Shown here: positions 2,963 to 27,587 of the stretch, one piece after another
How the letters are laid out: the number at the start of each line of letters is the position of its first letter
Numbering within the stretch: the first letter of the stretch is position 1
DNA from: Myxococcota bacterium
GTDB lineage: Bacteria > Myxococcota_A > UBA9160 > UBA4427
DNA: 32,595 nucleotides
Assembly: GCA_029268645.1 (NCBI GenBank)
Contig: JAQWNI010000251.1
Coordinates: 1 to 32,595, forward strand
Direction: 5' to 3'
Notes under the pieces: generated by a model
What the model was told of the DNA's origin: nothing
What the model saw: only the letters and a program-made list of their open reading frames with translations
The model's database searches: none
Program-made: the position numbers and the translations under genes

Positions 2963-4699
2963 CTATTCCCCGATTAGGTAGTTCCTCAAATACAGATAAA
3001 GGTCTGAGAAGCTTGGATCCGGGTCCCACTCGAGGATAACCCCTTCATTCAACAGTGTCTTCCGAAGCACGGAGTAGTCGACATCCTGCACGCTTGTTTT
3101 TTGATCGATGGCCAGCGAAGCGGCGGCGCCTGCAGCCTGACCGAGCGCAAAGAAAACCGGCTCCATCCTAATTGAGCCGTATGCAGTATGCGAAGCGGAG
3201 ATCGCACTGGCCACCAGCAGATTGCGAGCCTCTTTGGCCAACGGGGTCAGGGCGCGATAGCTGATTGGAAACGGCTCAGGCACACGAATTGTCACATTCC
3301 CCTCATTCAAGGCAACCCCATCCGAACCAACGATTCGTTGCACATGATGGGAATCAATCGGATAGCTCGCCAGAGCGATCGGGTCCTCCACAACATCTCT
3401 GCCGAACGCATTGTGTTCAGTCATCACGTAGCGCCCCTTCAATCGACGCGCTTCCCTAACATAGAGTTGCTGACTCCAGCCATCGGTCTCAATAAATTCA
3501 TCGGAAGCGAGCCCCAAAGCTCCGACTTCTTGCCGGATTCCAATGGGAACATCCGGATCGTGGCTAAGAAAATAGAGTAGTCCCATTTGATAGGTCTTGT
3601 GGTCATCAAGGATCTTTTCCCGAGCGGCATAATCACCATCTGGATATCCGAAACTCGCACCGACGTAATCGGTCGAAATCGGGCCCAAATTATTAAGGTC
3701 GTACTTGCCGCCCCTAAGCTCGTTAATCTTCAGCAGCCCTGAACCGGTCCCCCCCCGAGCGGAGGGCACCATCCTTCTTGCGCGCAGATTGGATGTATCG
3801 AAGCAGAAGTTCGTAATGATCCTGATACTGGACATCGTCATACCTTAAGGGCTTAGACCAAGGGATCCTGTCACTCGAGCGGGTAAGGATCAGCCGAAAA
3901 TTGTAGGCCTGGACTTTACCATCTCCTGCTCCGGGTTCCGGCTGATCAAGACTCGAGACTCCAGCAAGGAGCCCGCTGGACGGATCGCCTTCAGAACGAT
4001 AAGGGTCAACCGGGTAAACAAAAGGCTGTCGGTAGTATGGTGACTCCGGATTCCCCTGAAATCCGTTATACCTCTCTCCGTAAAGAGAGTTGGCTCTCTA
4101 CCGACGATATAGGATACGCCAGCTGTCGCCATCAAATCGCCCTCGTAGCTCGCGTCGATAAAAACTTTCCCTCCAATCTCTAATCCACTTTCCATCCGAA
4201 TCGATTCAATCAAACCGTCCGATATGGAAACGCCGCGATCCAGATCGAGCCTCTCGTCGGTCAAGACAGTAAAGCCGTATCGAGCCGCCCACTGTAGAAA
4301 AACTGCAAGCGCTACCTTTGGCTCAAAATTCAAGACGAGATCGTGATCCGCGACCCTCGGCCCTCTCGCGCCATATCGCAAACTAATTTCTTCATAAAAC
4401 TGTCTCGCCAGCCCTTTAACAGCTGACTTGTTTCCAAAATCGGTCAGGCTCAGTCCGTTCGTCGTCATACCGCCAATCCGACTGGTGGGCTCAACTACGA
4501 CAGCTTCTTTGCCGAGTCGCTCGGCTTCAACCGCCGCTGCTAAGCCACTTGGCGTGGCGCCGTATATCACGACGTCGTACTGGATCGAGGGACTCGCCCC
4601 ACCCAGAACCGGCAAAAAAAACAATGCGGCCAAAATCAAAATAAAGGAACAGCTTCCCCGAAGCCTCAGCCTAAAACCGCGGGCCTGTGCAACCGGCAC
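2963..4699 (-). pseudogene. Secreted FAD-dependent oxidoreductase, two single-base frameshifts
   Basis: Reading leftward from a GTG at 4699 (GAGGA nine bases upstream), the protein starts with a signal-peptide-like stretch (SCSFILILAALFFLPVLGGA). It then has the Rossmann FAD motif DVVIYGATPSGLAAAVEAE and VVVEPTSRIGGMTTNGLS, typical of the FAD_oxidored family (PF12831), often annotated as FAD-dependent oxidoreductase or xanthan lyase. Near 4094 the frame breaks. The alternative frame continues perfectly (ERYNGFQGNPESPYYRQPF, then VQAYNFRLILTR) until a run of eight G at 3749-3756. There the original frame resumes (GGKYDLNNLGPISTDYVG, later GQAAGAAASLA) to a stop at 2963. A lost base near 4094 and an extra base in the G run cancel, so the restored protein would be 578 residues with all family blocks. 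Everything else is well conserved, so this is either a very recent pseudogene or two sequencing errors. Confidence 0.82.
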
Positions 4700-5596
4700 G
4701 CCAGGATTTCCTCGGGTTTGACTCGTCAAAAAATTTAATCCCACAGGACCCACCAAATCTCTGCTCCACCGGCCTAGCCGTGAGCGGCGAGGGAGGGGCC
4801 ACCAAGGCACTCTAATAGCTAGAGCGTGACATGCCCTCCCCCGCCCTGCAACGCAATACGAAGGGCAAGATCCGGGATCCGATCCGTCGCAGCATGCTCT
4901 TGTACACTATGGTAACAAGAGGGCAGGCTGCACTAAAGATGCTCTTCGACGAGCCCCTCAAGGTTCGGATCGTGTTCAGCCCGCTTTGTTTACGGGCGAC
5001 AAAGAGTTTCTCGAGCCGTACTGGGAGGCGACCGCCCAGCAACTGCGAGCAATGGCCAAGACTAGACAAGCGAGGGGCTGAAAATTTCCCCGCGTCCCCG
5101 GCTCAGGACGTCAGGCGAGTCGCACTTTGTTCGATCCCTGTACCAGAATGACTTTTGTCCTTCGGCTTCGAACACCCAAATCGTGCCGACTTTTTCTTCT
5201 GGAAGTGCGACGCTATCGGCTTCGCGCCTTATAGAGCATTCTGCGACCCCTTAGGAAGCGCTGCGTTGCGCGCAGGGGGGGCCGGGTTTCAATCGTGTTC
5301 CCCCAGTGACCGAGTTAGCTCGACTCTTCGGCCGGTCGCGGGCAGGCTAGATCGAATGGATCGCGCGGAACATCCGGCAGGTCCTCGGCGGCCTCGATGC
5401 GCATGAGTCACTCTTCGCAAATCGGTGATACTGAGGGTCGCTCGCTGAGGCAGAATAGACCACCCGATACTCACATCATCGATCCGGGGTGCGTGAACCT
5501 GATGGGGAACTTCGATTTCGCGGAGGCGACGGGGCGAACCAGCACGGCTCGAAGCCAACGACCATCCCGCCTGGGTCTCCCCTTTGCCCGGATCGC
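4700..5596. other. Approx. 0.9 kb without a recognisable gene
   Basis: Open frames here are short, and none has both a ribosome binding site and a family motif. One stretch looks protein-like: a frame ending at a TGA at 5079-5081 reads ALFTGDKEFLEPYWEATAQ over its last 33 codons, but its upstream part is out of frame and I could not name a family. It may be the end of a decayed gene. The rest, including the G run near 5274, shows nothing definite. Confidence 0.4.
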
Positions 5597-7552: not shown

Positions 7553-8059
7553 ATGGATTGGCGCGACACTTTTTCGACGTTGGCGGAAATTTCCGTTGGC
7601 ATTCTTGGATTCACGGCGGTTGTCAGCGCTCTTTCAAGCCCGAAGAGTCGTGGCCAGTACTCCGAAGCACATTTCCGAATGCTCTGGTTTCTCGACAGGA
7701 CCCTCTTGCTGATCGCCGCGTCGGTCTTGCCGTTTGCTGTCTTTCAGTGGGTCGAATCGGGAAATCTCGGTTGGAGAGTCGCGTCAGCACTCTCAATTTT
7801 CTTGGGATTAACGTTGCAGATTTACCGTATTAGACTTCCGTCGTATGTCACCTGGGTCAAGGCTCTGCCAAGGCCGATCTTTTTTGTCTTCGGCCCCGGA
7901 GACATCTTCTTTGTTTTTACGCTGGTCGCGATGACGTTCGGCGCGTTTCCTGACTCGGAAGCGCGCATGTACACCTTGGCCCTTTACTATCTCCTAGCCT
8001 ATTCGATTTTCGGATTTGTTTACTTTGTGGAGCTCATTTGGAAGGAAGAGTCCCCCTGA
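7553..8059 (+). CDS. Small integral membrane protein of unknown function
   Basis: A 168-residue protein with about four hydrophobic segments: around residues 10-28 (AEISVGILGFTAVVSAL), 48-66 (LLLIAASVLPFAVFQW), 73-90, 108-128 (FFVFGPGDIFFVFTLVAMTF) and a last one near 140-160 (LALYYLLAYSIFGFVYFVE). I do not recognise the family. Many environmental genomes carry similar short proteins starting with D-x3-T-x-A-E-I/V-x-x-G-I, annotated as hypothetical. The ATG at 7553 gives the cleanest N terminus, but there is no strong ribosome binding site; a partial family B element ends just upstream. It is flanked by same-strand genes at a distance, so it is probably transcribed alone. Confidence 0.65.
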   Translation: MDWRDTFSTLAEISVGILGFTAVVSALSSPKSRGQYSEAHFRMLWFLDRTLLLIAASVLPFAVFQWVESGNLGWRVASALSIFLGLTLQIYRIRLPSYVTWVKALPRPIFFVFGPGDIFFVFTLVAMTFGAFPDSEARMYTLALYYLLAYSIFGFVYFVELIWKEESP

Positions 8060-8521
8060 GCCGCGACGGTCCGCGAATTCCACTGCACTGCTACAAAAGC
8101 AAGAGCTTTCAGTAGAGGTAGAGCGTCGCAATAAGAACGAATCACCGTGGAGTGGCCTTGGAAAGAATTTCAGGCAGTCGGCCACACTGTGACTTAATCC
8201 CAGGAACATCAAAATGACCCAGACCTGTTCTTCGACGGCGCAGGAGAAATCTCGTCTTACCCCCTGAATGGCGTTGCCGCCCTAGTTTCCTCCGACACCC
8301 AACATGTCATTACGATAGACTCCGTTCCTGCCTTTCTCTGGCTCCACAGATCTGGCCATCAGTGGTCTAAATGACCTTTGACCGCTGACCGGGGGGGCTT
8401 CACTAGAGCTGCGGGTCAGACTTTCGGCAACAAATAGGACAAATGAACTGTCCAATTTTGATTCTCGCCGGCTAGGGCGCTTTGCCAATTTCCTGTGCAG
8501 AGACTGTGATGGGCTAGGGCT
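8060..8521. other. Long spacer before the carotenoid oxygenase, no gene seen
   Basis: About 460 bases with no supported gene on either strand. A weak hairpin AAAGC / GCTTT with a 4-base loop (8096-8109) follows the membrane protein gene and might help end transcription. Short minus-strand frames here overlap the next gene and have no motif. Confidence 0.4.
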
Positions 8522-8565
8522 TGCTGTGCCGGGCACGCCGGCTCGCGCCGCCATAGCGAGGCAGC
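8522..8565 (+). promoter_or_regulatory. GC-rich tandem hairpins upstream of the carotenoid oxygenase
   Basis: GCCGG (8528-8532) pairs with CCGGC (8538-8542), and CTCGC (8542-8546) pairs with GCGAG (8556-8560). The flanking GCTG and GGCAGC could close the structure. It sits about 100 bases before the start codon at 8662, so it could be a structured leader or the end of an upstream transcript. No T run follows. Confidence 0.3.
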
Positions 8566-8661
8566 ATGGTCTATGCTGACGGGGTGCTCGCCGAAGGGTT
8601 CGGAGCGGGCCCCGCGACCAAAGAGCCAGCAATCCAGCAGCCAAGAGGAAGACGAGAAGAT

Positions 8662-10098
8662 ATGGCCCATGCGAGTTCCACCAGCTCGAGCATTCCCCTT
8701 GATCCGCGGGGACAGGGACCCGATGCCCCCTGGCACTTAAAAGAGAGCCGTGCTCCTGTCTTCGATGAAGTTACAATTCTCACCGATCAGCTTGAGGTCA
8801 AAGGGTCGATTCCCCCTGAACTCAATGGCCGTTACTGCCGGAATACAGCGAACCCGCAGACCGGGTGGACAGAGCACTGGTTCATCGGGGACGGCATGCT
8901 GCATGGGATCGAGCTCAAAGATGGGAAGGCCAACTGGTATCGAAACCGCTACGTGCGTACGCCCCAGTATGAAAACCCTGGCGCCGACCGTCTTGAGCTC
9001 GCCCTCAACAAAGAAACCTTCACCTTTGACCACTCGGTGTCCGCGGCCAACACCCACGTAATTCGCCACGGCGGTCGAATACTCGCTCTCGAAGAGGGCG
9101 CCTTTCCCTATGAAGTCACGGCCGAACTGGATACGGCGGGCCCGCATACGTTCGAAGACATTTTGACAGGGCCCTTCACCGCTCATCCCAAAATATGCCC
9201 GGATACGGGTGAGATGTTGGCTTTCGGTTACGCGCAAATGGAGCCCTACCTCACCTACTACCGTGTTGATCAGAATGGGAAAATGGTTCAGAAAACACCC
9301 ATCACCGTCACGGGCCCGACCATGATGCACGATATGGCGGCGACTCGTCATCACGCCATCTTTATGGATCTCCCGGCGATCTTCGATTTTGAGCTGGCCA
9401 TGAAGGGCGGGATGCCGATTCGGTGGAGCGACGAATACCCAGCCCGGTTCGGTGTAATGCCGCGGGAAGGCGCCGATGCGGACGTACAATGGTTCGATGT
9501 AAAGCCCGGCTACTGCTTTCACACGCTCAATGCCTTCGATGAAGGCGATGAGACTGTGGTCTATGGAATGCGAGTGCCCGAGATCTGGCGTGACTCTTCC
9601 GCGATGGATATGACCTTGACGGTCGATCCTGCATCGAGCCCTCGTCTCTATGAGTGGCGTTTTAATCGTCAAACGGGCGGAGTGGCGGAGCGCTACCTCG
9701 ACGACGACTCTTCCGAGTTTCCTCGCATCCCAGACAGTAAACAGGGTCATGACTTCCGCTACGGCTATTCACTGGGAACGAGCGGCACAAGCAATTCGGC
9801 CTCAGGGGGGATGGGGAGTGCTGTCTTTAAATACGACCTTGCGAAGGGTGGATCAAAGGAAGTGCATTCCTTCCCAGCTGGTCACGAACCGGGAGAAAGT
9901 GTTTTTGTCCCCGCCGAAAACGGATCCAGCGAAGATGACGGCTATCTCATGACCTACGTCTGGAAACCGGACACAGATACCAGCTATTTGGTCATTCTCG
10001 ACGCATCGAATTTGGCCGCCGACCCCATTGCGGAAGTCCATATTCCCCGGCGAGTTGTTTCGGGTTTCCACAGCAGCTGGATCCCGGATGAACGCTAA
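8662..10098 (+). CDS. Carotenoid oxygenase (RPE65 / lignostilbene dioxygenase family)
   Basis: A 478-residue protein from ATG 8662 (AGAGGAAG and GAGAAG upstream). The open frame reaches back to 8566, but that part is low-complexity and lacks family motifs. The family cleaves a double bond in carotenoids or stilbenes using one Fe(II) held by four histidines. All four are visible: His175 (FTAHPKICPDTGEM), His223 (MMHDMAAT), His287 (YCFHTLNAFDEGD) and His470 (VSGFHSSWIPDE). The N-terminal signature LNGRYCRNTANPQTG with HWFIGDGMLHG is also present. The length is typical of bacterial members. The protein has no signal peptide and should be cytoplasmic or membrane-associated. The substrate is unknown; no carotenoid synthesis gene is nearby. 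Transcribed alone on the + strand. Confidence 0.93.
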   Translation: MAHASSTSSSIPLDPRGQGPDAPWHLKESRAPVFDEVTILTDQLEVKGSIPPELNGRYCRNTANPQTGWTEHWFIGDGMLHGIELKDGKANWYRNRYVRTPQYENPGADRLELALNKETFTFDHSVSAANTHVIRHGGRILALEEGAFPYEVTAELDTAGPHTFEDILTGPFTAHPKICPDTGEMLAFGYAQMEPYLTYYRVDQNGKMVQKTPITVTGPTMMHDMAATRHHAIFMDLPAIFDFELAMKGGMPIRWSDEYPARFGVMPREGADADVQWFDVKPGYCFHTLNAFDEGDETVVYGMRVPEIWRDSSAMDMTLTVDPASSPRLYEWRFNRQTGGVAERYLDDDSSEFPRIPDSKQGHDFRYGYSLGTSGTSNSASGGMGSAVFKYDLAKGGSKEVHSFPAGHEPGESVFVPAENGSSEDDGYLMTYVWKPDTDTSYLVILDASNLAADPIAEVHIPRRVVSGFHSSWIPDER

Positions 10099-14018: not shown

Positions 14019-15188
14019 ATGCCAAAGTCAGCTCTCACGGTCCTCGTTCCACTCTGTGGAGACCTGGACGCAAATACGGCGGGGCGCACCTACACAGAGG
14101 CCTTGTTGAACGAAATACAGCGTGATGATCGAGGCATCCACTGGATCATCGGTCTCGAAGAGAGCCTGATAAAACGAGTGAAGCAGAATAAGTCCGAAGC
14201 CCATATCAGCTGGCTACCCTTCCCACGTTGGAGTGTATCGAGCCTGGGCAGGTTGATCTTCGAGCAACTGCGCCTTCCCGCCATCATTCGCTCCACGAAC
14301 CCAGACGTAGTCTTCTTCTCCGCCAATTTTCTTACGCTCTTGAGCAAGACTCCATCCGTACTCGCCATACGCAGCCTCCTCTACTACCACTACCCAGGTG
14401 AGATTTCCAAACCTCGTCTGGTATCGCGAAAATTCTTGAATCGAAGAGGCGCTCACAAAGCGACAAGAATCGTCTGTCCATCCCAGAACATCGCCCGAGA
14501 GATCAACCAAATTCTAGATATTCCGCAGGAGCGGATCACCACCATCCTCCACGGCACAAGTTCCGCGTATCTCGAAAAGAAAACCGATGACGCGATTCTT
14601 GACCGCCTCGAACTACGCGATCGACCCTATTTCCTTTACCCATCGGCTCTTTGGGAATACAAGAACCACATCACCTTGATTCGCGCTGCGGAGAAGCTGG
14701 CGGACAGAGGCGAGAAAGCCGTCGTTGTATTTGCCGGCCACGGGATCGCGGTTAGGAATTCGCATGTCGACATGCTCAGGCGAGAGGCGAGAAACGTAAA
14801 GTTGCCCTCGGAAATTCTCTTTTCCGGCGAACTCGACCCCAGTGAACTCAATGTCCTCTACAAAAACGCTATCGCCCTACTTTTTCCATCCACATGTGAA
14901 TCCTTTGGAAACCCCATCGCCGAAGCGATGGCTTTAGACTGCCCAATTGTCGCTTCCAGTTCTCATGCAGTACCCGAGATCGTCGCTGGCGGGGGGATTA
15001 TTCTCGATGCTCTCGACGCAAACAAATGGGCCGGGGAGATGTCGCGGCTTGCCAACGACGCGCTCTATCGAAAGCTATGGTCCGAAAGGGCTTCAGCGCG
15101 CAAGAATCTTTACCTCATGGACCGCGCCATCGACGAACTCACTGAGGTAATCCGAAACGCCGCCATGAATCCTTCGGTATCGAGCTAG
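14019..15188 (+). CDS. GT4-family glycosyltransferase (GT-B fold)
   Basis: A 389-residue protein from ATG 14019 with TGGAG six bases upstream. The second half carries the donor-binding Rossmann domain of family GT4: YPSALWEYKNHITLIRAAEKL, VVVFAGHG, ILFSGELDPSELNVLYKNA, and the retaining-transferase signature EX7E as E294-SFGNPIA-E302 in STCESFGNPIAEAMA. The N-terminal half is an acceptor domain (PLCGDLDANTAGRTYTEALL). The enzyme would add a sugar from a nucleotide donor, on the cytoplasmic side, to a growing surface glycan. It faces the leftward operon, and its stop codon overlaps that of the convergent methyltransferase in the four bases CTAG at 15185-15188. Confidence 0.9.
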   Translation: MPKSALTVLVPLCGDLDANTAGRTYTEALLNEIQRDDRGIHWIIGLEESLIKRVKQNKSEAHISWLPFPRWSVSSLGRLIFEQLRLPAIIRSTNPDVVFFSANFLTLLSKTPSVLAIRSLLYYHYPGEISKPRLVSRKFLNRRGAHKATRIVCPSQNIAREINQILDIPQERITTILHGTSSAYLEKKTDDAILDRLELRDRPYFLYPSALWEYKNHITLIRAAEKLADRGEKAVVVFAGHGIAVRNSHVDMLRREARNVKLPSEILFSGELDPSELNVLYKNAIALLFPSTCESFGNPIAEAMALDCPIVASSSHAVPEIVAGGGIILDALDANKWAGEMSRLANDALYRKLWSERASARKNLYLMDRAIDELTEVIRNAAMNPSVSS

Positions 15189-15973
15189 TCTTCCAAGATG
15201 CGACGTGCAGTCAAAATACTGACCCGTTTGGTCACAATCATTGGACCTGTTTGATTGGAGATCTGGTTCAAACCGGCTTCGTATGTAGCTCCAGGAGTGC
15301 GCGCAAAAAGACTGGTTGCTTTCCAGTACTCCAGAAAGCTCAATGGTTCGGAAAACTCGATGCGATTCGTGTGAACAGCAACTTCGACTGAATCGAATCC
15401 AGCCCTCTCGACCGCTTCTCGAACATTTTCCTCCACATATCCCCACGCCATCCTGTCCGCATCACTCGGCTCAGCCCCGGTTGCTCTCCGATGAAATTCG
15501 TACAGCTCCCTGTTTGTATCGGACGCTGGGCCCGCCACGGCAAGCCTTCCACCGGGTTTCAGTACGCGAGCGAACTCAGACAAAGCCGCATCAAGATCAT
15601 CGTGATAGTAGATCGCGAAGATGCAGCTCAGCGCATCTGCAAAAGAAGCTTCGACGGGAATTTCCGCCGCATCCGCGACCTCAGCCCGTAGACCGAGGTT
15701 CCGGGTGCTTTCGACGGCATCTGCAGCAACATCGAAACCACGCGCGTAGCCTCCTGGAGAAAGCCGATCCGCCATTCGTGCCAGGAGTTGGCCTGACCCA
15801 CATCCTATATCGACCAGATTTTTCCCAGGACCGAGACACAACGCATCCGCCAGAGCTGCGGCAAGATCAAAGGTTCCGAGTTGAAGGTTTACGTCGCAGC
15901 GATGCGCGGCATCACTTGCACCCCGATTTAGATATAGATCCCCGGCAATCTCCCCTCTCTGTTTAGATGACAT
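15185..15973 (-). CDS. Class I SAM-dependent methyltransferase
   Basis: A 262-residue protein from ATG 15973, which overlaps the last 11 bases of the upstream PIG-L gene, so translation is probably coupled; longer frames toward 16129 lie inside that gene. Residues 53-61 give the SAM motif I, LVDIGCGSGQLLARMADRL, followed by ARGFDVAADAVESTRN, FADALSCIFAIYYHDDLDAALSE and VLKPGGRLAVAGP, in the order of Methyltransf_11/25 domains. In a polysaccharide cluster such an enzyme would methylate a sugar or its acceptor; the target is unknown. It is the last gene of the leftward operon, and its stop codon shares CTAG with the convergent glycosyltransferase. Confidence 0.88.
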   Translation of the reverse strand: MSSKQRGEIAGDLYLNRGASDAAHRCDVNLQLGTFDLAAALADALCLGPGKNLVDIGCGSGQLLARMADRLSPGGYARGFDVAADAVESTRNLGLRAEVADAAEIPVEASFADALSCIFAIYYHDDLDAALSEFARVLKPGGRLAVAGPASDTNRELYEFHRRATGAEPSDADRMAWGYVEENVREAVERAGFDSVEVAVHTNRIEFSEPLSFLEYWKATSLFARTPGATYEAGLNQISNQTGPMIVTKRVSILTARRILED

Positions 15974-16670
15974 AGCGCAAACACTCGAAGCCCTCAGCGT
16001 ATTCACAGCCTCCGAGCGCACCGAAAACAGAAGCTCGGGCTCGAATCCCTTCCAGACTGCGCCCATGAGGGGTATCAACGAGCTGGCTGGAGTAGCAGCG
16101 CATTGCGTCGAGTTTCTTTTCCAACACACTACCTATATCCACAAAAGTGGTAGGGTAAAATTGATAGGCCCTTCCCCCCCAACCGGCGGCTCCCGACTGC
16201 CCATAAGAGAGGACGAGTGGAACCAGGGGTCGCTTGCCATCCGGGGCCGGCCTTAGGGACGTAACGCACGCACGCGACATCGCGCGATGGTCCTGATGGT
16301 GGTCACCGAAGGAAGGGATGACGGCCAGAGAAGGGCGGTGGATCATCAATTCAGCCTCGACAAAATTAATCAGCTCGCTCTGAGCCACCGTGTCCAGTCG
16401 CAAGTGCTCTTCCTGTCCTCGAAAAAGCACCTTCCAGCTCGCACATCCCAATACCGCGAGCGCATGGGTCAATTCCTCTTCTCGGGTGTCGGCATCGGAA
16501 CTCGCTTCGTCATTCATCGAGTGAAAGCCTGAAACTACGCCGTAGAGGACATGAACGTCCCAGTTTTCTTCGCAGAGTCGAGCAATCATTCCTCCTGCGG
16601 CGAGAACTTCGTCGTCCGCATGGGGAGCCACGATGACTGCGCTCTTGTTTTGAGTTTCGAACAAAGACAT
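15963..16670 (-). CDS. PIG-L family deacetylase
   Basis: A 235-residue protein from ATG 16670, with GAAGG nine bases upstream; a GTG at 16691 is an alternative. The zinc motif is APHADDEVLAAGG (His17, Asp19, Asp20) and the second motif is GDHHQDHRAMS (residues 123-131, His125 and His128). This is typical of PIG-L / LmbE enzymes, which remove the N-acetyl group of GlcNAc on lipid or small-molecule carriers (GPI anchors, mycothiol, bacillithiol). Here it sits directly behind a GT4 glycosyltransferase, a pairing also seen in those pathways, so the natural guess is de-N-acetylation of an HexNAc added by that transferase. The next gene overlaps it by 11 bases. Confidence 0.92.
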   Translation of the reverse strand: MSLFETQNKSAVIVAPHADDEVLAAGGMIARLCEENWDVHVLYGVVSGFHSMNDEASSDADTREEELTHALAVLGCASWKVLFRGQEEHLRLDTVAQSELINFVEAELMIHRPSLAVIPSFGDHHQDHRAMSRACVTSLRPAPDGKRPLVPLVLSYGQSGAAGWGGRAYQFYPTTFVDIGSVLEKKLDAMRCYSSQLVDTPHGRSLEGIRARASVFGALGGCEYAEGFECLRYVI

Positions 16671-16736
16671 TTCCGGGCACCTTCTACGCACTAAAAATGA
16701 AGAGGATCATTCAACAATCGTGGAAAGAGGTTCGCT

Positions 16737-18239
16737 TCACATGGATCGATGGTCAGACGCATCAACGGAGGACTCGGACAGAATCAGGGGTACGTCCAGC
16801 AAGTAAGCGACAGGAGCCTCCGACCGCGAATCGAGCCACTCTCCTAGAGAATCGGCGGATTGAAGCTGGGCCTCTGGGCGAGAGATCGCCTCCCTTGCAC
16901 CCCGCGATCGCCCAAGGGCCACGTCTGCAACTCCGCCTAGCAGGCTCCGCAGCAAACGTCTCAAGCCCGGTTTCGGCCTCCTCTCGCTTGTCTGCGAGTC
17001 AATGAACGTCTGATCCAGCCCGACCGCCCAGTCCCTGGCCAACTGATGCGCATTCATCCAAGCGGCCGCCCACTTTTGACCGGCCTCTCCCATCGCGCGT
17101 CTTTCTTCATGCGAAAGAGCGGCCATTTCCACGGCGGCTCCTGCGAGAAAGCGCGTGGGGGTGTCACCGAGGCTAGCCTGGGCCTCGCAGGACCAACCCG
17201 CTCCAGAACGGGTGAGGATCTCTTCCGAGTGCCCCGAAGCGCAGGAAAGCACAGGAAGTCCAGCTGCCATGTAATCGAAGAGTTTTCCGGGGAGAACCGA
17301 ACGAAAGAGCGGATAGTCCGACAGCGTAACTAATGCGATGTCTGCACCCTTGAGCAGGGGTGCCAGAGCCGTCTTCGGAATCGGGCCGAGATCGCGCACG
17401 TAGGACTTCTTCCGGGCAGCAGCGGTCACGCGCGGCCGTTCGCGGCCGTCCCCACAAAAGACCCAAACGATTCTGGGATCGCGGCCGTGCGCTCTGTCAG
17501 CCGCCCTGAGTACGTCTTCGATACCGTAGTACTCGTTGAGAGAACCCGCATAGAGTACCACGATATTCCCATCCAGATCGTTGGCACTACGCCATGATCT
17601 GGCCAACTCTGGGGGACAATCGGCAAGAGCCGAATCCGAACCCGTAGGAATCACTTCAATCTTGCATTTGGGCACACCGAGTGCTTCGAAGTATCGAGTA
17701 AAACCGGGAGAGACCATTAGGCACCGGTCTGCGAACCGGGCCACTGAGGCTTCGAGAACCGAAAGCAAACCGTCCAAGATTGAGCTCTTCACCATTCCTA
17801 TCTCCACAAGCATGGCCGGCCATAGGTCTCGTACTTCGAAGACGAGAGGAAGGTGACGGTAGGCGGCCAGAAATAGCGCGGGTAACACTTGCGGCAGCGG
17901 TGGGCTCGAGCAGTAAATCAGATCCGGATGCTCAAGGCGCAGGGCCAGACCCAACGCCTTTCGCGAAAAATCAACATAGGATGCCTTACGCCTATGATGA
18001 CCGTATTTTCCCCGAGTCATCCCAAGCCGATGAATTCGTAGGTTGCCTTCGGTTTCTGTCAGGTAGCGACTGGGCTCTATATCGCTGTCGAGATAAGACC
18101 CGTGACCGCAGATCAAATCAATCGACCAACCCCGCTCCAGAAGAGCCGAAAGCAGCAATACCGGTCGCGAGTTTCCCGCCTGATTGCGACTGACAAAATT
18201 TTGATGAATCCAGATGAGACGCGCTATGCCAATCTCCAA
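16737..18239 (-). CDS. GT4-family glycosyltransferase (WbuB-like) with a C-terminal extension
   Basis: A 500-residue protein; the only start near the conserved N terminus is TTG at 18239 with a weak upstream site, so the start is uncertain. The order of motifs fits WbuB-type GT4 enzymes that add N-acetylated hexosamines in O-antigen and capsule pathways: LIWIHQNFVSRNQAGNSRP, VFEVRDLWPAMLVEIG, GSLNEYYGIEDVLRAADR and SVLPGKLFDYMAAGLPVLS. Family members are usually about 400 residues; this one has about 90 extra residues after the domain, starting near DQTFIDSQTSERRPKPG and including RRLLRSLLGG, with no motif I can name. It is the first gene of the leftward operon, 66 bases before the PIG-L gene, and diverges from the epimerase gene. 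Confidence 0.88.
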   Translation of the reverse strand: MEIGIARLIWIHQNFVSRNQAGNSRPVLLLSALLERGWSIDLICGHGSYLDSDIEPSRYLTETEGNLRIHRLGMTRGKYGHHRRKASYVDFSRKALGLALRLEHPDLIYCSSPPLPQVLPALFLAAYRHLPLVFEVRDLWPAMLVEIGMVKSSILDGLLSVLEASVARFADRCLMVSPGFTRYFEALGVPKCKIEVIPTGSDSALADCPPELARSWRSANDLDGNIVVLYAGSLNEYYGIEDVLRAADRAHGRDPRIVWVFCGDGRERPRVTAAARKKSYVRDLGPIPKTALAPLLKGADIALVTLSDYPLFRSVLPGKLFDYMAAGLPVLSCASGHSEEILTRSGAGWSCEAQASLGDTPTRFLAGAAVEMAALSHEERRAMGEAGQKWAAAWMNAHQLARDWAVGLDQTFIDSQTSERRPKPGLRRLLRSLLGGVADVALGRSRGAREAISRPEAQLQSADSLGEWLDSRSEAPVAYLLDVPLILSESSVDASDHRSM

Positions 18240-18512: not shown

Positions 18513-19646
18513 ATGACTAAGCCCTATTTCAAACGAGAACCTTCGGGCGCCCCACTTGGGTGGGGCAGCGAACCGACGAATTCCTTCCACCCAAAAGACT
18601 CCAATGTGCTGGTGACCGGTGGATCCGGCTTCATTGGGACTTGGCTCGTGCGAGCGCTGGTGCGGCGAGGCGCCCACGTCACGATTCTCGATGATCAGTC
18701 GACCGCGAATTCTCTCACGCCTGATCCGATTCCGAATACTCGCCTGATTACTGAGAGCGTTCTCGATCTCGAAGTACTCAAACGCCAGAACATAGACTGC
18801 GACTTCGTGTTCCACCTCGCAGGGGTCGTGGGGATGAGGCTCGCCCACAGAGATGCAGCCCATGCTCATCGGGTGTCTGCTGAGGGCACCCGCAATGTGC
18901 TTGCAATCAGCGGCGACGTTCCGATTGTTTTGTTCTCCTCTTCGTCGGTGTACGGTCAGGGCAAGGCCCTGAACGAGGGCGAAGAAGTGAAGATGTCTGA
19001 AGAACAGCCCATAGATGTCGAAGAAATCCGAGCCTACGATGGCGGCCCCATCGGCTATGCAAACGGAAAAGTTGAAATCGAAAGACTCGCTCATCAAGTC
19101 TCGAAACGCGGCAGAAAATGTCTCGTGGTTCGGCCTTTCAATGTAATCGGGCCTGGCCAATCGGCACGATACGGTATGGTCGTTCCCCGTTTCATTGCTG
19201 CTGCCAGAGCCGGAGCCCCCCTTCGTATCTACGATGATGGTTTCCAAACCCGCTCTTTCGGCGACGTCGGGCATTTCATCGAGCATCTGCTTTCGCTCAC
19301 ATCCCAACCGACCGCCTTTTCACACGGCAACAACGTATTCAATCTCGGAAACTCTGAGAGCACGACAATCGCTGCACTGGCGAAAGCAGTAAAAGAGGCC
19401 ACCGGGTCTGAGTCACCGCTTAACTATGTTCCCTACGAAAAGGACTTCCCGGGCCGCAGAGACATCCGTCACCGGAGCCCCTGCGTGGACCGGGCTGAAT
19501 CGCTCATTGGGACACTTCAATGGTCAAACATCGACGAGATCATCCATGCCATCCTTCGACACCAGACGGGTCCACAAAAGTCTCATACGATGTCTTTACA
19601 CGAGGGGCCTCTGACTTCCAGAAAAACTCATTCGGCTGCTGGATAG
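18513..19646 (+). CDS. NAD-dependent epimerase/dehydratase (extended SDR)
   Basis: A 377-residue protein with the NAD-binding motif TGGSGFIG at residues 35-42, an acidic ribose-binding position at LDDQS, HLAGVVG, the active-site strand FSSSSVYG, and the catalytic pair Tyr182-Ala-Asn-Gly-Lys186. RPFNVIGPGQ and the end-region DVGHFIEHLL confirm a nucleotide-sugar epimerase/dehydratase. The usual YGxSK is YANGK here. About 30 residues precede the Rossmann strand, longer than usual, so the true start could be further in; ATG 18513 has only a weak ribosome binding site. It begins the rightward operon; the next gene starts four bases after its stop. Likely product: a modified UDP- or GDP-sugar for the cluster's glycan. 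Confidence 0.9.
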   Translation: MTKPYFKREPSGAPLGWGSEPTNSFHPKDSNVLVTGGSGFIGTWLVRALVRRGAHVTILDDQSTANSLTPDPIPNTRLITESVLDLEVLKRQNIDCDFVFHLAGVVGMRLAHRDAAHAHRVSAEGTRNVLAISGDVPIVLFSSSSVYGQGKALNEGEEVKMSEEQPIDVEEIRAYDGGPIGYANGKVEIERLAHQVSKRGRKCLVVRPFNVIGPGQSARYGMVVPRFIAAARAGAPLRIYDDGFQTRSFGDVGHFIEHLLSLTSQPTAFSHGNNVFNLGNSESTTIAALAKAVKEATGSESPLNYVPYEKDFPGRRDIRHRSPCVDRAESLIGTLQWSNIDEIIHAILRHQTGPQKSHTMSLHEGPLTSRKTHSAAG

Positions 19647-19650
19647 GCGG

Positions 19651-21012
19651 ATGACGAGTCACGATGTGGTCGTGATCGGTGCGGGCCCGGCTGGCCTGGC
19701 TGCCGGCTGGTCGCTGGGCGAGCGTGCGTGCGTACTCGAACGGGAGCAAAAGCCAGGAGGACTCGTCCGAACAGACTGTATCGATGGATATTGGTTCGAC
19801 CATGTCCTGCACCTGCTCCATCTCTCGGATCCACCCACGGAAGCGCGACTGCGCACCCTCCTCGGGCCAATCCTCACGCCGTGCCCTCCAAACGCTTGGG
19901 TCGACTGCAGCGCCGGAAGCGCGCGATATCCACTGCAGAACAACTTAAGAACACTCGACACCGAAGCCATCGTTAGGATCTTGTCAGATTTCGCCGAAGA
20001 GGCCTTCCGGGATGAGAAAGTTGAGCCTTCTACACACGAAGAGGTGCTCCTCCGCTCCTTTGGAAAGGCTCTGTGTGAAATCTTTTTCTTCCCTTATCAG
20101 AAGAAAGTCTGGAAGCGTCCTCTGTCGAACCTTGCAGCCACAGAATTTCAGTGGAATATCTCTCGGCCCAATTTTGACGAGATCCTACGAGGAGCCTTCG
20201 CCACACCCTCTTCACTCGCCCCCCAGTCAAAGACAATCTATAACCAAAATAGCTGGTACCCGAGGCCTCCAGGAGATGCGCCGATTCGTGGCATGGAAGT
20301 CTTGATCCACGAGATGCTGGCTCATGTTTCCGAGTTGAAGCTGAGCCACGATGTCGTCTCGATCGATCCTCAGTCTCGCCAGCTCCGAGTCCGTACCCAC
20401 GGCAAGGAGCTTGGCATCTCCTACGAGTCAGGTTGCGTAGCCACTCTGCCTCTTCCCAATACGATTCGCTTGTGCACCGACGCACCGCCGGATCTGCTTC
20501 GCAATATCAACCGTCTGCACTACAACCGAGTGCGATCCGTCATGGTGGGCGTCCGTGGGCCTCGGCACGAGAACACCGGGCTATGGAGGTACTACGCAGA
20601 CGAAAGTCTGATTTTTTCGCGACTTGCGTTCATGACGGAATTCGATCCCCTGATGGCACCTTCAGATGGTTTTGGGATCTTGGCCGAAGTGACCGAACCG
20701 GCCGAGGATCCGAAAACTCCCGATGCCAAAATTGCCGAAAAAGTCATCGCTGATATTAGACGCGTAGGCTGGATCCGCCCTTTGGATGAAATTCTCGTCA
20801 CTCGCGTTCTGACCATAAGTCCCGCCTATGTGGTTTTTTCCCATGACACCCGGAATATCCTCGCGGAGGCCAAGTCATTTTTGACGGAGCGCCAGATCGA
20901 GCCGCTGGGGCGTTACGGGCGCTGGGAATACTCGTCGATTGAATCTGTCATCCGAGACGGCTTCGAATGCAGTCAAACCTTCCGTTCTTCGGCTAAGCGT
21001 TCAGGGCCATGA
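19651..21012 (+). CDS. FAD-dependent amine-oxidase-fold protein related to UDP-galactopyranose mutase
   Basis: A 453-residue protein from ATG 19651 with GGATAGG just upstream, overlapping the stop region of the epimerase transcript. It starts with the dinucleotide-binding motif VVVIGAGPAGLAAGWSLG and then LEREQKPGGLVRT and GYWFDHVLHLLHL, the layout of NAD(P)-binding_8 / UGM-like flavoproteins. Other blocks are FFPYQKKVWKRPLSNLAATEFQ and GMEVLIHEMLAHV. Such proteins in polysaccharide clusters are often labelled FAD-dependent oxidoreductase or LPS biosynthesis protein. Ring contraction of a UDP-sugar is possible, but the close match is to uncharacterised relatives and not to Glf itself. It overlaps the next gene by four bases (ATGA), which shows tight coupling. 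Confidence 0.82.
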   Translation: MTSHDVVVIGAGPAGLAAGWSLGERACVLEREQKPGGLVRTDCIDGYWFDHVLHLLHLSDPPTEARLRTLLGPILTPCPPNAWVDCSAGSARYPLQNNLRTLDTEAIVRILSDFAEEAFRDEKVEPSTHEEVLLRSFGKALCEIFFFPYQKKVWKRPLSNLAATEFQWNISRPNFDEILRGAFATPSSLAPQSKTIYNQNSWYPRPPGDAPIRGMEVLIHEMLAHVSELKLSHDVVSIDPQSRQLRVRTHGKELGISYESGCVATLPLPNTIRLCTDAPPDLLRNINRLHYNRVRSVMVGVRGPRHENTGLWRYYADESLIFSRLAFMTEFDPLMAPSDGFGILAEVTEPAEDPKTPDAKIAEKVIADIRRVGWIRPLDEILVTRVLTISPAYVVFSHDTRNILAEAKSFLTERQIEPLGRYGRWEYSSIESVIRDGFECSQTFRSSAKRSGP

Positions 21013-22940
21013 CCGAATTTTCGACCACTGCATTTAAAATTTCCTCGGCGCTCTTCGTATTCAGCATGGGGACCATCGCCGGCGCCATCGCAACGGCTGG
21101 TTTCCAAAAATTGGCGATCCGCATTCACTTTTCGGCACCGTACAACCCGATTGCTAACCAGCATCAGGAACCGGTTGCCTATCTCGGCGGACTTGGCGTC
21201 GCCACTCCACTCATACTCTATATAGCGTGGCAAGCAATCACCTCTTCGGCGGCTGCCCCGGCCCAACTCTTTCCTCTCGCTTTAGCCAGCTCGATCTTTC
21301 TGATTTTAGGTTTGCTTGATGATGCGCTCAGCCTCGGCCCCAAGCGGAAAATTGTTCTTCAATTTTTTGCGGCAGGAGTCGCATGCGCAGTGGTCTCTGT
21401 GGCACCACTTACGGGAATTGCTCTATTCGATTTCCTGCTGTCCATGCTCTGGATCGTGGCAGTGATCAACGCTGTCAATTTCACGGATGTATCCGATGGA
21501 CTAGTAGGCGGACTTTCCTGCATTGCGCTCTTTTCCTTCGCCTTGCTGATTCCTGAACTCCAAACGTTTCTAATCATCGGTGCGGGCGCCTGCCTGGGAT
21601 TTCTATGGCTGAATCGGCCCCCAGCGCGGATATTTCTAGGTGATGCGGGGAGTCACTTCCTCGGTAGCTTGCTCGCCCTACTTGGAATCGTGTCGGTTCA
21701 GAATGGCCTCTCTTGGTCGAACCTTCTCTCCGTCATCCTGGTGCTCGGAATCTTTCTTCTCGAAATGACGTTCATCACATGGGTCCGGATCAAAAAAGGG
21801 ATTCCCTGGTGGCGGGGGAGCCCTGATCACTTCTCGCTCCGTATGCAAGCTGCGGGCTATAGTCGCTCTCGCATCAATGCTCTCACCTGGATCGTCGCAC
21901 TTCTACTAGCGGCGACTGGCATATTCATCCACGTCTGGCCGATGCATATCAGCATTCTGGTTATTAGCGGACTGATCGTCCTGATCGTCCTTGTCTGGAA
22001 GAAAATGCTCTCCTTGGAGGTGACGCAGCCGGAAGCAATGCAACCCCAACCTCTGCAGGGAGCACCGGACGGTGATTGCGGCCTATGCAAGGAAGCCGCG
22101 ATTTCTCGTTTCATCGACACGGGCGTGGCGCGCGTCGGGATCTGCTCCAGTTGTGGCACAGGACGCGTCCTCACGCTGAATTTCGGCCCACGCGGTCCTG
22201 GATTTGTCGACTCCTATGCGGAGGCCTATGCGACAGAGAGAAGAAGCGACAAGGCTCTTTCGTGCATGGAAGTCTTCGATACTTACGGCCCTAAACCAGA
22301 GAGCCACCGGAAACTCCTCGAAATTGGATGTGGTCGAGGTGAATTCTTGGACCTGGCTCGTGAGGCGGGCTGGGACACGACAGGCGTCGAGATTTCACGC
22401 GTATCCGCCGCCGTAGTGAAACAGTCGGGGCATCACGTATCGCAGAGTTCCGCGCTCGATTTCCTACCCGACAGTCCCGGCCACTTCAGTGCGGTGGTCA
22501 TGTGGGATCTCCTGGAACACCTCGACTCTCCGCGCATCGCTCTAGAAAACTGCATCCGGTGGCTGCGACCGGGCGGCACGCTCGTACTCGTAACGCCCTT
22601 TATGGGAAGTTTCTACGATCGCCTCGGACTCTTCGCTCACTCTACGGGCCTAGCCCGTCGTAACCCACTTCTCCGTATGTGCTGGAGTCAGGCACACCTC
22701 TACCGTTTCTCTCCATCCGGACTACGCGAGGAACTCGTCAAAATCGGATTTTCAGATGTTTTCATTGAACCCAAACTGCTTCTATCTCTTAGTTCCGACA
22801 GGTATGCCGGCGGAGATCTTATGCCACGCTGGAGCCAGATCTCCTTCCTCAACCGACTCGGGTCGCGGTTGGGAGTAGCTGCCGCATCGAGGTTCAGCTT
22901 GGAAAACAAAGTGGTCGTCGTCGCACGGAAACAGCCCTGA
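21009..22940 (+). CDS. Fusion: polyprenyl-phosphate sugar-1-P transferase (MraY/WecA family) + zinc-ribbon methyltransferase
   Basis: One uninterrupted 643-residue frame. Residues 1-330 form a polytopic glycan-lipid initiating transferase of the MraY/WecA family: LGLLDDALSLGPKRKI (Asp104, Asp105), NAVNFTDVSDGLVGG (Asn157, Asp160, Asp163; Val161 replaces the usual Gly), FLGDAGSHFLGS (Asp212) and the cytosolic loop block WWRGSPDHFSLRM. These enzymes transfer a sugar-1-phosphate to undecaprenyl phosphate. After a short linker (about 335-352), residues 357-382 hold CGLC and CSSC, a likely zinc ribbon, and residues 436-450 the SAM motif LLEIGCGRGEFLDLA with VMWDLLEHLDSPRIALENC and WLRPGGTLVLVTP, a complete methyltransferase domain. 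The two are normally separate proteins. The gene overlaps the FAD gene by four bases and ends the operon. Confidence 0.9.
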   Translation: MTEFSTTAFKISSALFVFSMGTIAGAIATAGFQKLAIRIHFSAPYNPIANQHQEPVAYLGGLGVATPLILYIAWQAITSSAAAPAQLFPLALASSIFLILGLLDDALSLGPKRKIVLQFFAAGVACAVVSVAPLTGIALFDFLLSMLWIVAVINAVNFTDVSDGLVGGLSCIALFSFALLIPELQTFLIIGAGACLGFLWLNRPPARIFLGDAGSHFLGSLLALLGIVSVQNGLSWSNLLSVILVLGIFLLEMTFITWVRIKKGIPWWRGSPDHFSLRMQAAGYSRSRINALTWIVALLLAATGIFIHVWPMHISILVISGLIVLIVLVWKKMLSLEVTQPEAMQPQPLQGAPDGDCGLCKEAAISRFIDTGVARVGICSSCGTGRVLTLNFGPRGPGFVDSYAEAYATERRSDKALSCMEVFDTYGPKPESHRKLLEIGCGRGEFLDLAREAGWDTTGVEISRVSAAVVKQSGHHVSQSSALDFLPDSPGHFSAVVMWDLLEHLDSPRIALENCIRWLRPGGTLVLVTPFMGSFYDRLGLFAHSTGLARRNPLLRMCWSQAHLYRFSPSGLREELVKIGFSDVFIEPKLLLSLSSDRYAGGDLMPRWSQISFLNRLGSRLGVAAASRFSLENKVVVVARKQP

Positions 22941-25297: not shown

Positions 25298-26851
25298 TCA
25301 GAGTCGGTCACCGAGCACGCTGAGTACTTCCGCCTGAGGAGAACCGGGTTCGAAGACATTGTTGGTGTGCGGTGGCCAGGCCATGAACCGACTCCAGCCC
25401 CAAACCGCTGTGCCCAGGAATTGCGGATTCGCGCGCACGCCGCTGGCCTCCATGGCTTCGAGGGCCTGCTCGACGTACTGGCGCTGCGCGTAGCCCGAAG
25501 GCGTGCCGCGATAGCGCTCGAATTCCTTGGTGGAAGCCGCCGCCGGGATCGCGAGTTGGAAGGGGACATCGCTTGCGGCGGCTGAATTCGAGACGGTGCG
25601 AGCGATTTCGTTCGCCACGTAGCCGCGGTATTCGTCGGGGTCCGAGGCAACGGTGGCTGCACCCGGGCCCAGGTCGTAGAGCGAAATGATCACGTAACCA
25701 TTGCCGTACCGGGTAAAGACTTCACCGAGTTCCGGCGTAATCTGATTGGCGAAGGTGAAGACCGAGAAAAAGCGGCCTTGGGGATAGTCCTCGCTACGGC
25801 AACCGAGGATGGGCTCGAGGTCTTGGTTCTCACCGGCCAAGTTAAGGGCCACCTGATCGTAGAACCAGAACTGGGCCGGATCGTTGATGTCGAAAGGCTC
25901 GAGATCGAGCTGGACGCCGGGCACGGCCGGATCGGCGCAAACGGCCCGCGCAAAAATGTCCGCGTAGGTTCGCGCCTGGCTTTCACTCAGGGTTTCGAAC
26001 TCTTGTAAGTAGCCTCCGGCGTCAAAGCGTCCATCGAAGGTGGGGATCACCACGACTTCGCCGGGGGTCTTCGCATAGGCCTGCGTGCTGACAAATCCGC
26101 TTGCACCGGTTTCCTGAAAGCTCCGGTTGGCGCTCTGCGCAGTGGGCGGGTAGTAGTAGACATGCATTTTATTCGGGGTGCAGTCGGAGCCGCCCCGGCA
26201 TTCCATCTCGAGATCACCGCCGTAGGAGAAGACTTGATCGAGGCGGTGCCCGGCTTCGGCCTGGGCGTTGTATTCCGAGATGGCTTCGCGCCAGAGACCG
26301 GGGCTCACATAGGGTTCTCCATCGGGACCCTGGGGAAAGGTGGCGTCATAGACCCAGGTGCCGTTGCCCCGTGGCGGAAAATCACGATCGGACGCATTCG
26401 GTGGGTTCGTGACTCCGTCGCCGGAGTCGTCCGAGTCGTTTCCTCCGTCGGGAGAATCGGGTTCATCGGGCGTCGGCGGGACAGGCTCCACGGGAGGCGG
26501 AGTCGGGGTGGCCGGAAGCTGGGCAAGAGGTGCGCAGTCGCCGCCCCCTCCCACCCCGATCCCAACCCAGTGAACGGGGATCTTGAGGGTGCCGTAGCGA
26601 TCCTGAAGAGCCCCGCAAACATCAAGCCCCGTGGTGCTCGAGGCCGTGAGATAGATATGTCGATCGTCTCCCCAGCTGCTGGGCACACCGAACTGGGCGC
26701 CGGGTTCGATTCGGCTGGTGGCGCCGGAGACAGGGCTACTCAAGTTGAGAGCCTCCGCAGAGTCATTCACCACGGTGAGGGCGGAGGCGGTGCCGGCCGC
26801 TGCGATTGAGATCCCACAGGCGAGTGTCCAAAGGCAAGTACGCAACGACAT
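25298..26851 (-). CDS. Secreted protein with proline-rich linker and TIM-barrel-glycosidase-like domain
   Basis: A 517-residue protein from ATG 26851, seven bases after AGAGGA. Residues 1-24 form a signal peptide (CLWTLACGISIAAAGTASA). A beta-rich domain to about residue 110 (LTVVNDSAEALNLSSPVSGA) is followed by a Pro/Asp/Ser-rich linker at about 112-150 (PATPTPPPVEPVPP, GNDSDDSGDG) and a C-terminal domain of 350 residues. The latter has MHVYYYPPTAQ, VVVIPTFDGRFDAGGYLQEF and PGVQLDLEPFD. The D-x-E on a strand end (Asp316, Glu318) resembles the GH18-type catalytic strand, and the fold looks like a TIM barrel. I cannot assign a known glycosidase family. The first domain could bind a sugar or surface. 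An inverted repeat upstream may be its operator. Confidence 0.7.
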   Translation of the reverse strand: MSLRTCLWTLACGISIAAAGTASALTVVNDSAEALNLSSPVSGATSRIEPGAQFGVPSSWGDDRHIYLTASSTTGLDVCGALQDRYGTLKIPVHWVGIGVGGGGDCAPLAQLPATPTPPPVEPVPPTPDEPDSPDGGNDSDDSGDGVTNPPNASDRDFPPRGNGTWVYDATFPQGPDGEPYVSPGLWREAISEYNAQAEAGHRLDQVFSYGGDLEMECRGGSDCTPNKMHVYYYPPTAQSANRSFQETGASGFVSTQAYAKTPGEVVVIPTFDGRFDAGGYLQEFETLSESQARTYADIFARAVCADPAVPGVQLDLEPFDINDPAQFWFYDQVALNLAGENQDLEPILGCRSEDYPQGRFFSVFTFANQITPELGEVFTRYGNGYVIISLYDLGPGAATVASDPDEYRGYVANEIARTVSNSAAASDVPFQLAIPAAASTKEFERYRGTPSGYAQRQYVEQALEAMEASGVRANPQFLGTAVWGWSRFMAWPPHTNNVFEPGSPQAEVLSVLGDRL

Positions 26852-27587
26852 GATCGGTCCTCTTCTCTCTATGAGCCGGATTGAATCGGCATTGGAGTAG
26901 TCTGGAGCTTCGGAAACCATTTTTGGTTTTCGAGTTCCGACTGATTGACCACTTAACGCAAACATGAACATTATTTAATGTGATCAGGCTCACGCGTCGG
27001 CTCGACAAACGTCGGTAGGAAAGGCGCAGGAGGAGGCCACTTCAATGTGGGCTAGAAACTAAAAAGGGATTTTGGGGGGGGAGGGGGACAGTGATGTCCG
27101 GATACTCGGAAATCACTTCCTCGTCCTAGCCTTACCAGCTGCCGCATCGTGCTTGCGAATCACGGTAGAAATCTTTGATGTCCGCCATCGCGGCCCGGCT
27201 GTTGGCGACAAGTTCGCCGGATCTTTTCTCAACCAGGACATCGAGGGCCTCTTGGCCCGACACAGATTCGTCGTCCGGAAAGGTCCAATCCGTGCAAAGA
27301 GATCCCCTTGGCTTTGGGGACGCTGACAGCCCGGGTGACAGCGATGCTCAACGTCCGGGTACGGGCTTTCTGTTAACCCCCTGAGGCCCATTGCACACGA
27401 TTCCGCTTCACTCAAGGGCCCGTACAGGCGCATCACCTGTCGAGTGGTGGCTGGAGGCGGTGTCAGCTTTAGCAGAGGACGCCAGCCTTCTTGCCCCCCC
27501 TAACTTCTTCTGTCGATTTATCTTCTGTGGCCATCGCCAAGGGCATATACTGAAGTCGTCAGATTCCTATCTGCGACGGAGGCGACG
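26852..27587. other. Approx. 0.7 kb intergenic region between divergent secreted-protein genes
   Basis: No supported gene. Weakly protein-like frames occur around 27110-27430 on both strands, but none has a start with a ribosome binding site or a known motif. A run of eight G lies near 27073. AGCCCG (27328-27333) and CGGGCT (27362-27367) form a loose inverted repeat. The region should contain the promoters of both flanking genes. Confidence 0.4.
26968..26981. promoter_or_regulatory. AT-rich inverted repeat, possible operator
   Basis: ACATTA TT TAATGT is a perfect 6+2+6 inverted repeat in an AT-rich patch, about 117 bases upstream of the secreted protein gene read leftward. It could be a regulator site or part of a promoter. 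Confidence 0.35.

What the first reader, a model, noticed from the sequence alone, without database searches (positions are those of the whole stretch)
21009..22940. Single protein joining a MraY/WecA-type lipid-sugar transferase and a zinc-ribbon methyltransferase
Sequence shows one uninterrupted frame with all MraY/WecA blocks (DD at 104-105, D160/D163, GD at 211-212) and, after a short linker, paired CxxC motifs and a full SAM-binding domain. Known members of these families are separate proteins. Inference: methylation of the lipid-linked sugar or its first sugar could be coupled to initiation of the glycan. The usual Gly after the first Asp of the NxxNxxDG motif is Val, which makes the catalytic loop unusual as well.
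Basis: partly seen in the sequence, partly recalled or inferred. Interest (0 to 1): 0.65.

Follow-up and report, generated by a model that had tools for sequence, protein, structure and literature searches.

The report
Glycan-starting enzyme fused to a methyltransferase
In one uncultured bacterium, the membrane enzyme that loads the first sugar onto a lipid carrier is fused to a methyl-adding enzyme that is a separate gene in its closest relative; this is a new combination of two well-known parts, seen so far in only one assembled genome.

Summary
ORF 21009-22940 (+, 643 aa) is open throughout and joins a polytopic phosphoglycosyl transferase (polyPGT; PF00953, E 1e-28) to a CxxC/CxxC class I methyltransferase (Methyltransf_23, E 4e-24). 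AlphaFold2 gives 11 transmembrane helices with an MraY fold, then a SAM-methyltransferase fold. This topology puts the methyltransferase on the cytosolic side, with the transferase active site.

The gene ends a conserved cassette: SDR epimerase, a flavoenzyme related to UDP-galactopyranose mutase, polyPGT. Eight other genomes have it, and in all eight the polyPGT stands alone. One of them (G098) encodes orthologues of both halves as separate genes of one cluster, so both belong to one pathway. No second fusion turned up in about 1,150 genomes.

Two first-reader points fail. The "unusual" Val161 is invariant in all nine cassette members. PolyPGTs with C-terminal partners also exist: several carry CoA_binding_3.

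Best reading: a bifunctional polyPGT coupling glycan initiation to methylation of a lipid-linked sugar. The fusion rests on one draft MAG contig that carries a frame-disrupted gene elsewhere, so an artefact (about 10%) is not excluded. The methyl acceptor is unknown.

The parts
21009..22940 (+). Fused ORF, 643 aa: polytopic phosphoglycosyl transferase + Cys4-ribbon class I methyltransferase
   Evidence: Open frame; two Pfam domains in frame; AlphaFold2 model with both folds
21009..22022 (+). polyPGT domain, residues 1-338: 11 predicted TM helices; D104-D105, D160/D163, G211-D212, SPDHFSLR loop (H274)
   Evidence: PF00953; alignments; model helices 7-335
22023..22076 (+). Linker, residues 339-356; contains an in-frame ATG at 22038 (M344); an SD-like GGAGGTGA starts just upstream at 22016 and runs to 22023
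   Evidence: No homology to stand-alone relatives; low pLDDT 341-414; start context
22077..22154 (+). Cys4 ribbon, C357xxC360 and C379xxC382
   Evidence: All four Cys conserved in the stand-alone orthologue of G098; zinc binding itself not tested
22260..22754 (+). SAM-methyltransferase core (residues 418-582)
   Evidence: Methyltransf_23 E 3.8e-24; fold match to class I methyltransferases
19651..21012 (+). Flavoenzyme related to eukaryotic-type UDP-galactopyranose mutase; overlaps the fused gene by ATGA
   Evidence: Family profile E 4e-40 to fungal UGM; conserved partner in 9 loci
18513..19646 (+). SDR-family nucleotide-sugar epimerase/dehydratase
   Evidence: PF01370 E 1.2e-31; conserved partner in 9 loci
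16737..18239 (-). Glycosyltransferase (GT4/GT1 folds); in G098, G171 and G020 its orthologue directly follows the polyPGT
   Evidence: Pfam; synteny 39-42% identity
15963..16691 (-). PIG-L-type de-N-acetylase; orthologue in the G098 cluster (53%)
   Evidence: PF02585 E 1.4e-17
15185..16129 (-). Second, separate SAM methyltransferase; true start probably near 15966 because homology begins at residue 57
   Evidence: Methyltransf_11 E 6.6e-15; orthologue in G098 47%
14019..15188 (+). Glycosyltransferase group 1; orthologue in the G020 cluster (55%)
   Evidence: PF00534 E 1.1e-23

Best explanation
The gene encodes a bifunctional polytopic phosphoglycosyl transferase. Its first 338 residues move a sugar-1-phosphate from a UDP-sugar to a polyprenyl phosphate on the inner face of the membrane, which starts a glycan. 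Its C-terminal half is a SAM-dependent methyltransferase with a small Cys4 ribbon, held on the same cytosolic face by a short flexible linker. Most likely it methylates the lipid-linked first sugar, or a sugar added soon after, before the glycan crosses the membrane. The donor sugar is probably prepared by the neighbouring epimerase and the UDP-galactopyranose-mutase-like flavoenzyme; the PIG-L deacetylase and second methyltransferase suggest an amino sugar that is deacetylated and methylated. Shown: intact ORF, both domains, predicted folds, motif residues, conserved cassette, separate orthologues in one cluster. Inferred: cytosolic C-terminus, activity of each domain, identity of the sugar and of the methyl acceptor, coupling.
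For: Both domains in one frame; fold model with 11 TM helices, MraY fold and methyltransferase fold; catalytic Asp residues and SAM motifs intact; orthologues of both halves are separate genes of the same cluster in G098, together with epimerase, PIG-L, second methyltransferase, flavoenzyme and glycosyltransferase; the methyltransferase orthologue was found only in that genome among 379 of the phylum; the epimerase-flavoenzyme-polyPGT trio is conserved in nine loci; other polyPGTs carry C-terminal soluble domains; enzymes acting on the Und-PP-linked first sugar have precedent (Gnu, PMC3682973).
Against: One contig of one draft MAG only; no other fusion found; no data on the substrate; the methyltransferase could act on the nucleotide sugar or a later sugar; an in-frame ATG with an SD-like sequence lies in the linker; the ribbon and linker are poorly modelled.
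Confidence: 0.52

Rival explanations
1. The fusion is real, but the methyltransferase acts on the nucleotide-bound sugar before transfer, or on a sugar added later in the chain. The fusion then only channels the donor or holds the enzyme near the membrane assembly site.
For: Over its whole length the methyltransferase model has its highest query-normalised score, among the top matches, with KijD1, a nucleotide-sugar C3-methyltransferase (TMq up to 0.58). The cluster has several glycosyltransferases and a second methyltransferase.
Against: Fusion to the initiating enzyme rather than to the epimerase, the flavoenzyme or a later glycosyltransferase points to the first lipid-linked sugar, but weakly. 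The resemblance to KijD1 is 16-17% identity and its family-specific domains PF08421/PF08484 were not matched.
Confidence: 0.27
2. There is no fusion protein in the cell: two neighbouring genes look fused through an assembly or sequencing error, or the methyltransferase is made separately from the internal ATG at 22038.
For: All eight cassette relatives have a stand-alone polyPGT and G098 a stand-alone methyltransferase. The contig carries another gene with a frame-shifted middle. GGAGGTGA lies 14 nt upstream of the in-frame ATG.
Against: Both halves read in the same frame and the unexplained stretch is only about 55 bases, so a specific error is needed. The SD-like bases encode the conserved E-V of the polyPGT C-terminus (WEV in L015, L116 and L093), and the spacing is longer than usual. 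Known SD-less starts are common in this window, so the SD argument is weak both ways.
Confidence: 0.13
3. The methyltransferase half is a non-catalytic regulatory or scaffolding domain, as the CoA_binding_3 domain on other polyPGTs may be.
For: C-terminal Rossmann-like soluble domains on polyPGTs recur.
Against: SAM-binding motifs are intact and conserved with the stand-alone orthologue at 41-42% identity over the full length.
Confidence: 0.05

Closest known systems
WecA / WbpL / MraY polytopic phosphoglycosyl transferases (PF00953)
   Same: Same domain, Asp motifs, MraY fold; 11 predicted helices as in WecA
   Different: C-terminal methyltransferase; TDV-C/S/A-DG loop with Val in place of Gly and an SPDHFSLR loop, both shared with eight stand-alone relatives. 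All NCBIfam WecA/MraY scores are below their cut-offs
Bifunctional monotopic PGTs (Bi-PGTs; described in PMC10942596)
   Same: A glycan-initiating PGT fused to another functional domain
   Different: Different PGT superfamily (monotopic). The same paper's table lists polyPGTs as 'PGT only'
polyPGT-CoA_binding_3 fusions (L097, L123, L124, L128, L129)
   Same: PF00953 followed by a C-terminal soluble domain in one protein
   Different: The partner is CoA_binding_3 after an extra stretch that reads as membrane segments, not a methyltransferase
Zn-ribbon sugar methyltransferases such as KijD1 (PDB 5t6b)
   Same: Fold match over ribbon plus methyltransferase core, TMq up to 0.58
   Different: 16-17% identity; PF08421 and PF08484 not matched; fused to a membrane enzyme
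Stand-alone Zn-ribbon methyltransferase of G098 (L092 about 7818-8676)
   Same: Full-length orthologue, 42% identity, all four Cys conserved, same gene cluster
   Different: Separate gene, located before the flavoenzyme gene

Membership tests
Polytopic phosphoglycosyl transferase (PF00953) | Match to the family model above the curated cut-off | tested here: met
   100.8 bits against cut-off 27
Polytopic phosphoglycosyl transferase (PF00953) | Catalytic Asp residues (DD; NxxNxxDxxDG; GD) | tested here: met
   D104-D105, D160, D163, D212 conserved
Polytopic phosphoglycosyl transferase (PF00953) | MraY-type multi-helix fold | tested here: met
   Foldseek TMt up to 0.77 to MraY
Polytopic phosphoglycosyl transferase (PF00953) | Sugar-1-phosphate transfer to polyprenyl phosphate | not testable with these tools
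   Needs an assay
WecA or MraY as named equivalogs (TIGR02380, TIGR00445) | Score above the NCBIfam cut-off | tested here: not met
   58.2 against 326 and 58.7 against 192; so it is a PGT but not filed as WecA or MraY
Class I SAM methyltransferase (Methyltransf_23) | Match above the curated cut-off with the SAM-binding motif | tested here: met
   85.7 bits against 27; LLEIGCGRG motif conserved
Class I SAM methyltransferase (Methyltransf_23) | Methyl transfer from SAM | not testable with these tools
   Needs an assay
Zn-dependent sugar C-methyltransferases (KijD1/TcaB9 type) | PF08421 zinc-binding and PF08484 C-terminal domains | tested here: not met
   Neither is among the Pfam matches at E 0.001
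Bifunctional monotopic PGT (Bi-PGT) | Monotopic PGT catalytic domain | tested here: not met
   The catalytic domain is polytopic PF00953 with 11 predicted helices; it works like a Bi-PGT but is not one
UDP-galactopyranose mutase (flavoenzyme neighbour) | Sequence homology over most of the length | tested here: met
   Profile E 4e-40 to fungal UGM, in two pieces covering most of the chain
UDP-galactopyranose mutase (flavoenzyme neighbour) | Mutase activity and catalytic residues | not tested
   Catalytic residues were not mapped; the substrate is unknown

The most novel reading that the evidence does not exclude
A polytopic phosphoglycosyl transferase that methylates its own lipid-linked product, within an otherwise undescribed glycan-initiation route in which an epimerase and a UGM-like flavoenzyme make an unusual (perhaps furanose or amino) first sugar recognised by a DVCDG-type polyPGT subfamily.
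Probability: 0.22. Interest if true: 0.55.

Novelty: new variant of a known kind. Interest (0 to 1): 0.36.

Why it matters
PolyPGTs commit a shared lipid carrier to one glycan. A methyltransferase tethered to that step would link sugar methylation to initiation, and the fusion tells which separate genes elsewhere belong to the same pathway. It also draws attention to a conserved epimerase / UGM-like flavoenzyme / DVCDG-polyPGT cassette in at least two phyla, whose first sugar is unknown and can be tested directly.

Tried and rejected
Chance ORF, or two unrelated genes read as one: rejected, because both halves align in one frame to orthologues that lie in one cluster elsewhere. 'Unusual catalytic loop': rejected, Val161 is invariant in nine of nine. 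A second fusion in G098, suggested by an 807-aa open frame: rejected, it is spurious read-through upstream of a 344-aa gene in high-GC DNA. A fusion in G349 (597 aa): real, but to CoA_binding_3. Long polyPGT frames in the phylum of L015: CoA_binding_3 in all four scanned; frames of about 560 and 830 codons were not examined. Plasmid relatives of the flavoenzyme: distant, in other contexts. Paper searches for polyPGT-methyltransferase fusions: nothing in the held library; the PNAS 2021 network paper on PGT fusions is not held. Alignment A4 misplaced the methyltransferase-only rows and was replaced by A5.

Full report
Observation. The ORF at 21009-22940 (+) is open for 643 codons. Residues 89-229 match Glycos_transf_4 (PF00953, E 1e-28) and residues 418-582 match Methyltransf_23 (E 3.8e-24). 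The frame starts in an ATGA overlap with the preceding flavoenzyme gene; the same overlap is seen in L015, L116, L092 and L093. GC3 is 0.60 before and 0.61 after the join.

Fold and topology. AlphaFold2 on alignment A5 gives mean pLDDT 77, with 11 transmembrane helices in residues 7-335 and a methyltransferase fold after about residue 415; residues 341-414 are poorly modelled. Foldseek finds MraY structures (TMt up to 0.77) and class I methyltransferases. With eleven helices, the catalytic Asp residues, the His loop and the C-terminus fall on one side of the membrane, which the known topology of WecA makes the cytosol. MraY, with ten helices, has its C-terminus outside (established knowledge), so the eleventh helix matters for a SAM enzyme. 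This step is inference from the model and hydropathy.

Neighbourhood. Upstream lie an SDR epimerase (18513-19646) and a flavoenzyme (19651-21012) whose family profile matches fungal UDP-galactopyranose mutase at E 4e-40. Before them, partly on the other strand, are a glycosyltransferase (16737-18239, -), a PIG-L deacetylase (15963-16691, -), a second methyltransferase (15185-16129, -) and another glycosyltransferase (14019-15188, +).

Relatives. The trio epimerase, flavoenzyme, polyPGT occurs in eight further genomes: G098, G171 and G020 of the window's phylum, and L015 (Bacteroidetes MAG), G576, G701, G723 and G739 of the order of L015. In all eight the polyPGT is 328-352 aa and ends close to where the fused one enters its linker. 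G098 has epimerase, PIG-L, second methyltransferase, Cys4 methyltransferase, flavoenzyme, polyPGT and glycosyltransferase in a row, each 40-53% identical to the window's version. So the same seven genes recur, with the methyltransferase separate in one genome and fused in the other. In G098, G171 and G020 the polyPGT stop overlaps the start of the next glycosyltransferase gene; in the window that gene sits on the opposite strand and the methyltransferase follows the polyPGT instead. A local rearrangement before the fusion is the simplest history (inference).

How rare. Searches with the whole protein or a profile of it found no other match spanning both domains in 379 genomes of the phylum, 398 of the order of L015, and 267 and 111 of two phyla, nor in plasmids or IMG/VR. 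The scan of 84,980 genomes uses exact peptide patterns and reaches only near relatives, so it says little. The number of candidates scored per genome was limited. 'Rare' is safe; 'unique' is not.

The Val residue. Position 161 is Val in nine of nine cassette members, with Cys at 162 in seven. It marks a subfamily and is not a peculiarity of this protein.

Precedent for fusions. PolyPGTs with a C-terminal CoA_binding_3 domain occur in G349 and in four genomes of the phylum of L015. PMC10942596 describes bifunctional monotopic PGTs with fused domains, while its table lists polyPGTs as 'PGT only'. Modification of a lipid-linked first sugar is documented for the 4-epimerase Gnu (PMC3682973).

Mechanism. 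Most likely the PGT half makes polyprenyl-PP-sugar and the tethered methyltransferase modifies that sugar or one added next. The fold match to the KijD1 C3-methyltransferase keeps open that a UDP-sugar is the substrate. Nothing here identifies the acceptor or shows coupling.

Reliability. The fusion rests on one contig of an 83% complete MAG. The same contig has a FAD-oxidoreductase gene at 2963-4810 whose middle reads in another frame, so either gene decay or indel errors occur on it. The critical stretch is about 55 bases long and both sides read in one frame, so I put the artefact-or-separate-product reading at about 13%, most of it artefact. An in-frame ATG at 22038 with GGAGGTGA 14 nt upstream would allow internal initiation, but those bases also encode the conserved E-V of the polyPGT C-terminus.

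Verdict. A real-looking, rare domain fusion with good functional-linkage evidence; a new variant of fused PGTs, of moderate interest.

Noticed in passing
window 2963-4810 (-): A FAD-dependent oxidoreductase gene (PF12831) is split into two ORFs; its middle part reads in a different frame, with two stops in the main frame. Either a pseudogene or indel errors on this contig; it bears on how far single-base accuracy can be trusted.
   Followed up: partly
L097 7313-9106; L123 1450-3312; L124 1438-3318; L128 382-2334; L129 1489-3432: PolyPGTs of about 600-650 aa with a C-terminal CoA_binding_3 (PF13727) domain. To my knowledge this domain usually precedes monotopic large PGTs, so two unrelated PGT superfamilies seem to share an accessory domain. 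Further frames of about 560 and 830 codons were not examined.
   Followed up: partly
window 18513-21012 and L015, L092, L093, L094, L116, L117, L118, L119: Conserved epimerase / UGM-like flavoenzyme / DVCDG-polyPGT cassette in two phyla, with no assigned glycan; the two L015-order loci read in full also have a polysaccharide deacetylase right after the polyPGT.
   Followed up: partly
window 16129: The listed GTG start of the second methyltransferase overlaps the PIG-L gene by 167 bases; homology begins at residue 57, so the true start is probably near the PIG-L stop.
   Followed up: no
window 8566-10098 (+): Carotenoid-oxygenase family protein (RPE65, PF03055, E 4e-118).
   Followed up: no
window 25298-26971 (-): 557-aa ORF without any Pfam or NCBIfam match at E 0.001.
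   Followed up: no
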